Of a stretch of DNA of 64,000 bases, positions 33,901 to 36,732 are shown one piece after another (within the stretch, counting starts at the first letter, position 1; each line of letters begins with the position of its first letter). Made by a program: the position numbers and the translations under genes. The DNA comes from Pagrus major (taxonomy: Eukaryota > Chordata > Actinopteri > Spariformes > Sparidae). The notes beneath the pieces were generated by a model. The model made no database searches and was not told where the DNA came from. It worked only from the letters and a program-made list of their open reading frames with translations. The DNA lies in contig NC_133218.1 of NCBI RefSeq assembly GCF_040436345.1, positions 28,230,710-28,294,709 on the forward strand, in the 5' to 3' direction.

Positions 33901-36732
33901 GTAACCATTTCAACCTTTATTGTTCTGTAGGGCACATTGGTGAGCTGGACCAAAGGCTACAAGGCCACAGACTGTGAGGGACACGATGTTGTTAGCATGC
34001 TGCGGGAGGCCATCAAGAGACGCAACGTGAGTCAAAAGTTTCATAAAGATGACCTAGGATTTTTTAGATGAAGTGAAGAATAATGCTGCAGTCTGTCCTA
34101 TTTGTAAGTAATGTTCATGTACAAGTAGGAACAATGAGCCTGTAAGATGCAAAAATCTGTTTCACCACAACTTTAATGACAAATGATTGGACATCACTTT
34201 GACCAAAGTCCAGACTCTGTCACCATAATCATATATACTGTAGAGGACATTACATTACAGTACATTTCCTTGGATGATGAGTCGTGTACTAAAAACTACT
34301 CCCTAAAGAACGCAACTATAACATAACAGAAGTTAAAAACATGTCCATGTGTGTACCTTTGAGGACATATCCTGCAATAACAGCACTATATAGTAGCACC
34401 AGTAAATAGAGTGTATGCATGTATGTGTGTGTGTGTGTTTGTACCTGTAGGAGTTTGACTTGGACATAGCGGCAGTAGTCAATGACACAGTTGGGACCAT
34501 GATGAGCTGTGCCTATGAAGATCCTCAGTGTGAAATTGGACTGATTGCTGGTATGTGACCTACAATTTTTACAAAGTGACAATATTTTGGCTTGTTGCTC
34601 GGTTGTGTGTTTTTTTTAGGCTGCAGGTCTTTGCATTGTTAAGACTGGAATTATGCAGAAATAGAAAAAACAGTCATGAATCAGAGTTCAAGTACTTTTT
34701 ATGTATGTTGTGGGCGTAACTGTTGAACACAAACTTGTTGCTAAGCACACTGGATTTTGTCTCTGAACACAAGACTCTGAGTTTGACAACTCCCACTGAA
34801 ATCAACCTTGTGACTCTGCTTCACAGGAACTGGCACTAATGTTTGTTACATGGAGGACCTGAAGAACATTGAGAAGACTAAAGAAACGATTGGAAAGCCT
34901 GAAAAAGAAGAGGGGACACTTGAAAGAGATGAGGATAAGGTAGAAGAAGTCTCACAAAATGCTCCTAGTGTTTACTTTTGTCAGTGAGTGGGTTTTATTT
35001 TGATAATAACTCATGTTTTTACATTTTTTTCTACTTTTCTAGCAGGATGATAGGACTAAAGGAGAGAAAAAGGAGGGCGATGCTGACTTATCAAAGATGT
35101 GTATAAACACAGAGTGGGGAGGTCTGGGTGATGATGGCTCTCTGGATGACATCATCACACCGTATGACATTGAGGTGAACCAAAACTCGATCAATCCCGG
35201 AAAACAAAGGTTAGAAACACACATACTCTCATGTATTTAGGCAACATATTAACTTGTATACTTTTATACAAATGTATGGGACTGCTCACACACTGTTAGA
35301 GGATTTAAGAAATGATATGTGTCTTTGTGCAGGTTTGAAAAGCTGACCAGTGGGATGTACTTAGGAGAAATTGTCCGTCAGGTGTTGTTGGATTTGACCA
35401 GAGGAGGTTTGCTGTTCAGAGGCCACGTCACTGAAACGTTAAAAACACCTGGAATATTCGAAACCAAATACCTGTCACAAATAGAGAGGTAGGAGAAACT
35501 GCGTGTGTTTGTATGTGAGACTGTGTGTCTCCTTTAGATAAATGATTCCTCCGCTGTGGATGACAGTAAATGTTTGGCTGTCTTTTCCTGTAATGTGTCC
35601 AACTGTGTTCTCTCCCCCTAGTGACCGGCTGGCCCTGCTGCAGGTCAGATCTATTCTCCAACAGCTGGGGCTGGACAGCACCTGTGATGACAGCATCATT
35701 GTCAAAGAGGTAGAGGACAGAAAATGATGACATGGGACATTTTTTTTATATTTTGTATCTGTATATTTTGTAGTCTTTTTCACAGAAGATATTTTAGCCA
35801 GGAAAACTACAGGGGCAACTGATTACATTAGTCTCCACTCAAGTTTCCTCATTAATCCATACTAATGAGCCAGGCCCTTGACATATCACACCTGAATGCA
35901 ATGTTATTAATTACTCCCATGCTTCTCCTGTGGCGTTATCAAGCTGAATTAGTAAATTACAGTAGTATTTAGATGATAATGTGACTCAAACTCAAAACTT
36001 TTGAACCTCAAAAAGCATAATTCTGCAACACTTTGACCTATTTCTAGTCTCATATTCTTCTAAAAATGCCAGGGAGGGGTTAAAAGTTGAAATTTTGAAA
36101 CGCTACAATGAACAGAAGATCTTGTTCTCTGTCGCAACCTCACTTTGGGATTCAATAAGGGTTTTTTTGTATTGGTTGAATTGGTGATATGATATTCTCT
36201 GGCTCAGCAAACTGTGGCACCAACAGTTTGTTAAGTGTTGCAATAATGATAATGGTTTTCATTGTTTTTGCAGGTATGTGGGGCAGTGTCGCGTCGTGCG
36301 GCTCAGCTGTGTGGGGCAGGAATGGCGGCCGTGGTCGATAAGATCAGAGAGAACCGAGGACTGGACCATCTGAACATCACTGTAGGGGTGGACGGGGCAC
36401 TCTACAAACTGCATCCACAGTGAGTCATTTTTTATTTAGTCATAGTGAAACCACTTTAAAAGGATTCAGCTCAGTTAAATGTTTTGTTGTTGGTGGCTTG
36501 ATTCAAGAGTTACTTTTACTATTCGACCCTTTAATTTGCTTCTTCACATTACTTTATAAAAACTAATTAGTTTTTTCTTCTTTTCCTGCTTCTGTCTAGT
36601 TTCTCTCGAGTGCTCAAAGAGACTGCCAGAGTTATGGCTCCTCAGTGTAACGTGACCTTCCTGCCATCGGAGGAAGGCAGTGGGAAGGGTGCTGCCCTCA
36701 TCTCAGCTGGAGCCAGACAGAGGCATGACTGA
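27915..36732 (+). CDS. hkdc1: Hexokinase domain-containing protein 1 (two-domain hexokinase)
   Basis: Exons join(27915..27977, 29459..29621, 29744..29901, 30024..30146, 30237..30332, 30462..30561, 31621..31804, 31920..32075, 32163..32396, 32774..32915, 33023..33179, 33301..33440, 33661..33780, 33931..34026, 34451..34550, 34827..34939, 35046..35209, 35333..35488, 35622..35709, 36274..36419, 36600..36732) give about 943 residues (human HKDC1: 917). It should phosphorylate glucose with ATP at the outer mitochondrial membrane. The N-terminus [14 protein letters not shown] is the HKDC1-type anchor. Both halves keep LDLGG, the catalytic Asp (VND, 213 and 656), GTGTN and the Glu of TEWGG. The N-half departs at three places: FSFAC for FSFPC, WSK for WTK, NDTVAT for NDTVGT. 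The C-half has a charged 39-residue segment (694-732) where hk1 has eight. The C-terminus is short, ending GARQRHD. No stop or frameshift suggests decay. Called hkdc1 from its N-terminus and its place between supv3l1 and hk1. Confidence 0.93.
27978..29458 (+). other. hkdc1: hkdc1 intron 1
   Basis: A 1.5 kb AT-rich intron after the 21-codon first exon. No gene, regulatory motif or transposon recognised. Confidence 0.6.
31193..31575. repeat. Interspersed repeat, copy B, in hkdc1 intron 6
   Basis: Diverged second copy of the family at 9153-9657, with the same ordered phrases (GTTTACATGCTT, CTGTCCATCA, GTGATTGGTCAGCTC, GGGGGCGTGGCTAAG, GGCACCTTTAA). Confidence 0.55.
34827..35209 (+). other. hkdc1: Split exon carrying the hkdc1 catalytic-domain insertion
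   Basis: In hk1 and in the N-half of hkdc1 this coding unit is one 184-base exon. Here it is two exons (113 and 164 bases) around an intron of about 106 bases, and the coding total is 93 bases longer. The extra residues are Lys/Glu/Asp-rich (for example [15 protein letters not shown] and [13 protein letters not shown]) and interrupt the segment between NIE and MCINTEWGG. The acceptor is TAGCAG, so one Gln may be included or not. Confidence 0.85.
36184..36425 (+). repeat. hkdc1: Block near-identical to hk1 60563-60799 (conversion tract)
   Basis: The 3' end of intron 19 (90 bases) plus exon 20 match the corresponding hk1 segment. By hand count, 8 of 146 exon bases differ, and the intron flank shows 4 substitutions and 2 small indels. 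The preceding exon differs at 16 of 88. Confidence 0.85.

What the first reader, a model, noticed from the sequence alone, without database searches (positions are those of the whole stretch)
36184..36425. Recent gene conversion between hkdc1 and hk1 over exon 20 and its upstream intron flank
Exon 20 of hkdc1 and hk1 differs at only 8 of 146 bases, and the 85-90 intronic bases before it differ by 4 substitutions and 2 indels. Exon 19, just upstream, differs at 16 of 88, and other intron sequence is unrelated. Non-coding similarity as high as coding similarity, with sharp edges at 36184/60563 and a few bases after each donor, is the signature of conversion between tandem paralogues about 24 kb apart rather than purifying selection.
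Basis: seen in the sequence. Interest (0 to 1): 0.75.

Follow-up and report, generated by a model that had tools for sequence, protein, structure and literature searches.

The report
Gene conversion between neighbouring hexokinase genes
In this fish genome a 242-base piece of one hexokinase gene, the last part of an intron plus the next exon, appears to have been copied over the matching piece of its neighbour a few million years ago; copying between neighbouring genes is a known process, and here it also leaves open whether an intron spread from gene to gene.

Summary
Window 36184-36425 (hkdc1) and 60563-60799 (hk1) match at 93.0% over 242 columns, the window's best self-match, and the full segment was found nowhere else in this 786-Mb genome. 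Silent divergence collapses in this exon: 5 of 46 synonymous codons differ, against 236 of 501 elsewhere; 4 and 0 of 50,000 permutations reach the segment's score at two penalties. Between hk1 and its duplicate on contig C1 the same exon differs at 22 of 44 synonymous codons, so silent constraint is not the cause. The intron flank aligns at z 47.8; 29 other flanks stay at or below 2.8. Fourteen differences argue against assembly collapse. Best reading: ectopic gene conversion, probably hk1 to hkdc1, roughly 2-14 My ago on recalled rates. Exon 12 carries an older tract; exon 7 is doubtful. The intron involved is absent from the C1 hk1 copy, hk2, two gck-like genes and hkdc1's own N-half, so intron transfer is possible; convergent gain or repeated loss is not excluded. 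No other fish genome was available for the cross-species tree. New member of a known kind.

The parts
36184..36425 (+). conversion tract, hkdc1 copy (probable recipient): last 90 bases of the intron, the whole of coding exon 20, and 6 donor bases
   Evidence: 93.0% to 60563-60799; full length found at only these two places in the genome
60563..60799 (+). conversion tract, hk1 copy (probable donor)
36274..36419 (+). hkdc1 coding exon 20 (146 bp; called 17b in the scripts), part of the C-domain; lies within the Pfam Hexokinase_2 match
   Evidence: 8 differences from hk1, 2 of them amino-acid changes
60648..60793 (+). hk1 coding exon 20 (146 bp; 17b)
35710..36273 (+). hkdc1 intron 19 (564 bp); only its last 90 bases resemble hk1; the rest had no other match in the genome at the sensitivity used
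60043..60647 (+). hk1 intron 19 (605 bp); only its last 85 bases resemble hkdc1; about 60179-60423 is an interspersed repeat
35622..35709 (+). hkdc1 coding exon 19 (88 bp; 17a), outside the recent tract: 14 of 28 synonymous codons differ from hk1
   Evidence: four-gene tree of this exon pairs it with hk1 at 88/88, site patterns 4:1:2, so an older exchange is not excluded
59955..60042 (+). hk1 coding exon 19 (88 bp; 17a), outside the recent tract
33661..33780 (+). hkdc1 exon homologous to the 120-bp hexokinase exon 12: older, weaker conversion signal
   Evidence: 3 of 29 synonymous codons differ, Fisher P 6.9e-5; best-segment score reached in 205 and 35 of 50,000 permutations with exon 17b left out; 8 of 9 site patterns join hkdc1 to hk1, tree support 99/98
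58564..58683 (+). hk1 partner of the older exon-12 tract
31621..31804 (+). hkdc1 exon 7: doubtful further tract
   Evidence: P 0.22 and 0.08; best remaining segment 319 and 195 of 10,000 with exons 12 and 17b left out; site patterns 4/5/5 give no support; hk1 against the C5 hk2 gene shows a similar silent run at exons 7-8 (P 0.0085 and 0.0155), which points to constraint there
54627..54810 (+). hk1 partner of the doubtful exon-7 signal

Best explanation
Ectopic (interlocus) gene conversion between two tandem hexokinase genes about 24 kb apart. A break in hkdc1 near its exon 20 was repaired with hk1 as template. This overwrote about 240 bp: the 3' 85-90 bp of the intron, including the acceptor, and exon 20. 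The copies have since diverged by 12 substitutions and 2 indels. SHOWN: the local identity, its statistical excess, its confinement to this segment, its spread into non-coding DNA on one side, and freely changing silent sites in the same exon of a paralogue. INFERRED: the repair mechanism; the direction hk1 to hkdc1; the age (about 2-14 My with recalled rates of 3e-9 to 1e-8 per site per year); and that it was one event in a series, with exon 12 converted earlier.
For: Silent divergence 5/46 in this exon vs 236/501 elsewhere; dS 0.176 vs 1.84. Permutation 4 and 0 of 50,000. All 10 informative two-against-two sites join hk1 with hkdc1, Fisher P 3.9e-6; tree support for that pairing 79/78. Same exon, hk1 vs its C1 copy: dS 1.69, 22/44 synonymous codons differ, so the silent sites are not constrained. 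Intron flank z 47.8, unlike 29 other flanks. The full tract was found at two places only in the genome. Its length of 242 columns fits the 200-300 bp averages of experiments quoted in PMC3924818 (passages read). Direction: outside this exon and exon 12, hkdc1 is far from the C1 hk1 copy (dN 0.286; hk1 0.089), but in this exon it is as close to it as hk1 is (both dN 0.052), as expected if hk1-type sequence was written into hkdc1 and not the reverse.
Against: No other fish species could be compared. The gene pair is only about 67% identical over the rest of the coding sequence, lower than the identity at which conversion is usual (mainly above 80%, but possible below; PMC3924818); the neighbouring exon is 82%. 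The left edge lies inside intron sequence that is otherwise unalignable, so either the introns were more alike before or the repair had only one homologous end. Direction is not certain: hkdc1 exon 19 is also protein-conserved (28/29) without being recently converted. The ML tree of the remaining exons was unresolved (support 61/31, internal branch 7e-5) and nominally paired hk1 with hkdc1, unlike its site-pattern count of 107:60:55 in favour of hk1 with the C1 copy. The permutation test is not perfectly clean: among four control pairs scanned on synonymous codons, one (hk1 against C5) gave a segment at P 0.0085 and 0.0155; the other three had no segment below P 0.31.
Confidence: 0.93

Rival explanations
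1. Purifying selection: the exon and the intron flank carry a shared element (splicing enhancer, structured or non-coding RNA) kept since the old duplication.
For: Non-coding DNA is as similar as coding DNA; the right edge falls at the donor site.
Against: hk1 and its C1 copy differ at 22 of 44 synonymous codons of this exon. The C1 copy has no intron here at all. Rfam: the sensitive search was run on the hkdc1 stretch 35700-36620 only and gave one sub-threshold hit (E 2.9, minus strand, outside the tract); the whole window has none at gathering score. The two flanks do not fold unusually well (z -1.21 and -0.43).
Confidence: 0.04
2. Assembly artefact: one copy was wrongly written from reads of the other.
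For: The two copies lie 24 kb apart in tandem; no reads are available here.
Against: The copies differ by 12 substitutions and 2 indels, far more than a collapse or copy error would leave. The exon is in frame in both genes and no N is present in the window.
Confidence: 0.02
3. hkdc1 is a recent tandem copy of hk1 and the rest diverged fast.
For: Tandem arrangement.
Against: hkdc1 is about as far from hk1 as the C5 hk2 gene is: all-site divergence 0.310 against 0.323 over the whole coding comparison. The other intron flanks are unrelated. An SUPV3L1-like gene lies upstream, as in other vertebrates (recalled).
Confidence: 0.01

Closest known systems
Interlocus gene conversion between duplicated teleost genes (PMC10503786, abstract and outline seen)
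   Same: Conversion homogenises paralogues in fish; the abstract gives a median of 7-8% of post-duplication codon substitutions arising from conversion among 164 duplicated genes.
   Different: By abstract and keywords that survey treats codon substitutions of genome-duplication pairs. Here the pair is tandem, much diverged, and a non-coding flank was co-converted.
Intron transfer between paralogues (mechanism reviewed in PMC3443670, passages seen)
   Same: A paralogue's intron is carried to a sister gene by recombination. Here a shared intron is missing from the nearest relatives in the genome and its 3' part lies in a conversion tract.
   Different: The review's table lists 3 events, in Mycosphaerella, Aspergillus and Chironomus. 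Here transfer of the whole intron is not shown: its 5' part is not alike and the upstream exon is no more alike than other exons at silent sites.
Convergent intron gain in teleost slc26a1 / slc26a2 (PMC12357937, abstract and passages seen)
   Same: Lineage-specific fish introns, some at identical positions in family members.
   Different: There the shared positions are read as convergence. Here 85-90 bp of the intron are also alike in sequence.

Membership tests
Interlocus gene conversion tract | segment of significantly raised identity between paralogues against the rest of the same pair | tested here: met
   permutation 4 and 0 of 50,000
Interlocus gene conversion tract | raised identity at silent and non-coding sites, not only at protein level | tested here: met
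   5/46 synonymous codons vs 236/501; intron 4 substitutions in 85 aligned bases
Interlocus gene conversion tract | local gene tree joins the two loci against the tree of the rest of the gene | tested here: met
   site patterns 10:0:0 for hk1+hkdc1 here, against 60 of 222 in the rest, where 107 join hk1 with the C1 copy. The ML tree of the rest was unresolved, so the contrast rests on site patterns.
Interlocus gene conversion tract | within-species clustering of the segment across several species | not testable with these tools
   no other fish genome held
Interlocus gene conversion tract | tract length in the usual range | tested here: met
   242 columns against 200-300 bp averages in PMC3924818
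Intron transfer by gene conversion | intron at the same position in donor and recipient, absent from their relatives | tested here: met
   exon 17 split at E|V in hk1 and hkdc1; that place unsplit in the C-halves of C1 and C5 and in the two gck-like genes. Counting N-halves, 3 of the 10 hexokinase domains found have an intron at the homologous place (hk1 N and C, hkdc1 C). Met within this one genome only.
Intron transfer by gene conversion | both ends of the intron and both flanking exons alike in donor and recipient | tested here: not met
   only the 3' end of the intron and the downstream exon are alike; upstream exon has 14/28 synonymous differences, although its four-gene tree pairs hk1 with hkdc1 at 88/88
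HKDC1 / HK1 orthology | sequence and gene order | tested here: inconclusive
   Hexokinase_2 matches for both C-domain segments; SUPV3L1-like gene upstream (SUV3_C match is below its cut-off, 24.1 of 27 bits). By N-half, the C1 gene is nearer Hexokinase-1 (1332 vs 1217 bits), the C5 gene nearer Hexokinase-2 (1254 vs 1182), and hkdc1 about equal (1041 vs 1033); no HKDC1 structure appeared to compare

The most novel reading that the evidence does not exclude
Conversion did not only homogenise an exon: the intron at E|V in hexokinase exon 17 arose in one of the two tandem genes after the teleost genome duplication and was carried to the other by an earlier conversion. The recent tract is the latest of several exchanges at this point. 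That would be a vertebrate case of spliceosomal intron transfer between paralogues.
Probability: 0.3. Interest if true: 0.6.

Novelty: new member of a known kind. Interest (0 to 1): 0.4.

Why it matters
It is a clean, datable conversion tract that spans an intron-exon border between two hexokinase genes that are otherwise only about two-thirds identical in coding DNA. It warns that trees or selection tests built on this region of hk1/hkdc1 in this fish and perhaps its relatives will mislead. It may also show how a recently gained intron reaches a sister gene, a mechanism for which a 2012 review's table lists only three events, none in vertebrates (PMC3443670, passages).

Tried and rejected
Relatives in other organisms: viral contigs gave none (26 pattern matches, 0 confirmed). 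Genome contigs gave one 21-residue match in a Luteimonas MAG, which I did not follow and did not use. Functional non-coding RNA in the flank: not supported. Homology of the 5' ends of the two introns: first 50, 60 and 120 bp gave P 0.09, 0.10, 0.09, not significant. Homology of hk1 intron 9 with intron 17, since both sit at the homologous place of the N- and C-halves: no such pair above z 3.5. GC bias of the exon differences: 6 of 7 strong/weak differences are G in hkdc1 and A in hk1, P 0.125; four of these are CG in hkdc1 and CA in hk1, compatible with CpG decay in hk1, but outgroups settle only one of the four (36293). Exon 7 as a third tract: dropped to doubtful, because hk1 against the C5 hk2 gene shows a silent run in the same place.

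Print search for hk1/hkdc1 conversion or for such introns: open-licence PMC only; I saw listings, which for searches showed 15 of 333, 12 of 190 and 12 of 402 papers. None listed reports it by title or abstract start; the one paper was not opened; one search returned 0 papers.

Rows dropped before counts: exon 1 of both genes; about 33 residues of the insertion in hkdc1 exon 15; codons aligned to gaps; the exon 9 and 17b blocks include one codon whose last base is the donor G. In the 'rest' site patterns and the 'rest' dN/dS, exons 12 and 17b were left out. In one search the exon 17b borders were set one base too far right, which does not change the result.

Wording: the label 'hk2' stands for the C1 gene, later recognised as an hk1 copy, and 'c5' for the hk2 gene. 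'gck-like' for the C13 and second C5 genes rests on the single set of exons seen in the stretches fetched and was not tested further.

Full report
What is there. It holds an SUPV3L1-like gene, then two hexokinase genes on the + strand, called here hkdc1 (27915-36729) and hk1 (42740-62337).

The match. Self-comparison puts 36184-36425 / 60563-60799 far above every other match in the window: 242 columns, 93.0%, E 1.9e-98, 356 bits against 175 for the next. A whole-genome search finds the full segment only at these two places; the two other hits cover only exon, at 79% and 87%. Exon 20 differs at 8 of 146 bases; the flank has 4 substitutions and 2 indels over 85 aligned bases.

More than chance or constraint. 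Among 18 coding blocks, synonymous codons differ at 5 of 46 in this exon and 236 of 501 in the others; dS is 0.176 against 1.84 with exon 12 also left out of the rest. A GENECONV-like maximal-segment score was reached in 4 (penalty 2) and 0 (penalty 4) of 50,000 permutations. The genome holds a second HK1-type gene on C1, whose N-half is nearer HK1 than HK2 structures (1332 vs 1217 bits), and an HK2-type gene on C5. Against the C1 gene the same exon of hk1 differs at 22 of 44 synonymous codons, so its silent sites do change. All 10 two-against-two site patterns join hk1 with hkdc1, against 60 of 222 for the rest (P 3.9e-6). Of 30 intron flanks, only this one aligns (z 47.8; next 2.8).

Results that pull the other way. 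The ML tree for the rest of the gene was unresolved and nominally paired hk1 with hkdc1 (support 61/31), although its site patterns favour hk1 with the C1 gene 107:60:55. Of four control pairs scanned on synonymous codons, hk1 against the C5 gene gave a segment in exons 7-8 at P 0.0085 and 0.0155; the other three gave nothing below P 0.31.

Mechanism. Ectopic gene conversion is the best reading. The length fits experimental averages of 200-300 bp (PMC3924818, passages). Direction: hkdc1 is a fast-evolving protein outside the tracts (dN to the C1 gene 0.286; hk1 0.089), yet in this exon hkdc1 and hk1 are equally close to the C1 gene (0.052 each). If hkdc1 had been the donor, hk1 would have taken on hkdc1's divergence here. 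Age: Jukes-Cantor 0.049 in the intron, 0.084 with fourfold sites, or about 2-14 My at recalled rates of 3e-9 to 1e-8. The left edge is in intron with no other homology: either the introns were more alike then, or the repair was one-ended, copying outward from the exon and ending by non-homologous joining. I cannot tell which.

Not a single event. Exon 12 has 3 of 29 synonymous differences (P 6.9e-5), 8 of 9 site patterns joining hk1 and hkdc1 with tree support 99/98, and permutation counts of 205 and 35 of 50,000 with exon 17b left out. Its intron flanks are not alike (P 0.23 and 0.07), so it is older (dS 0.46). Exon 7 is doubtful: P 0.22 and 0.08, 319 and 195 of 10,000 with exons 12 and 17b left out, no support from site patterns, and a similar run in a control pair.

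The intron. Exon 17 of the usual hexokinase plan (234 bp, recalled for human) is split at E|V in hk1 and hkdc1 only. It is unsplit in the C-halves of C1 and C5 and in both gck-like genes on C13 and C5. The homologous N-half place is split in window hk1 (55421-55674) but not in hkdc1, C1 or C5. So 3 of the 10 hexokinase domains found in this genome carry an intron there. Readings: (a) recent gain and transfer between the tandem genes; (b) convergent gain at a favoured site, as argued for slc26 genes in fish (PMC12357937, abstract and passages); (c) an old intron lost many times. That hk1's N-half has one at the same place favours (b) or (c). Exon 17a, upstream of the intron, differs at 14 of 28 synonymous codons, yet its four-gene tree pairs hk1 with hkdc1 at 88/88 (site patterns 4:1:2), which leaves room for an older exchange. 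The recent tract carries only the 3' part of the intron, so it does not by itself prove transfer; I give (a) 0.3.

Limits. No fish genome other than the window's own was available, no reads, no RNA. Gene models rest on homology and GT-AG borders. Literature was an open-licence subset seen as capped listings; no listed title or abstract start reports hk1/hkdc1 conversion.

Noticed in passing
window 55421-55674, 56285-56454 (hk1); 32916-33022 (hkdc1): Further introns inside exons 9 and 10 that the C1 hk1 copy and the C5 hk2 gene lack; the exon-10 introns of hk1 and hkdc1 sit at different places. The tandem pair seems rich in extra introns.
   Followed up: partly
window 34827-35210: hkdc1 exon 15 carries about 32 extra, lysine/glutamate-rich residues where hk1 has 8 (NIE...MCxN), itself interrupted by a short intron (about 34940-35042).
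   Followed up: partly
window 60179-60423: Interspersed repeat inside hk1 intron 19: 41 of the 43 matches lie elsewhere and match this part at 69-85% identity (40 of 202 candidates scored, so a lower bound).
   Followed up: no
window 50213-50294 and 50745-50827: Inverted repeat of about 83 bp at 81%, perhaps ends of a mobile element upstream of hk1 exon 2.
   Followed up: no
window 33661-33780: In the older exon-12 tract hkdc1 differs from hk1 at 9 of 40 residues but only 3 of 29 synonymous codons, as if protein change was fast after conversion; NG86 still gives dN 0.144 below dS 0.457.
   Followed up: partly
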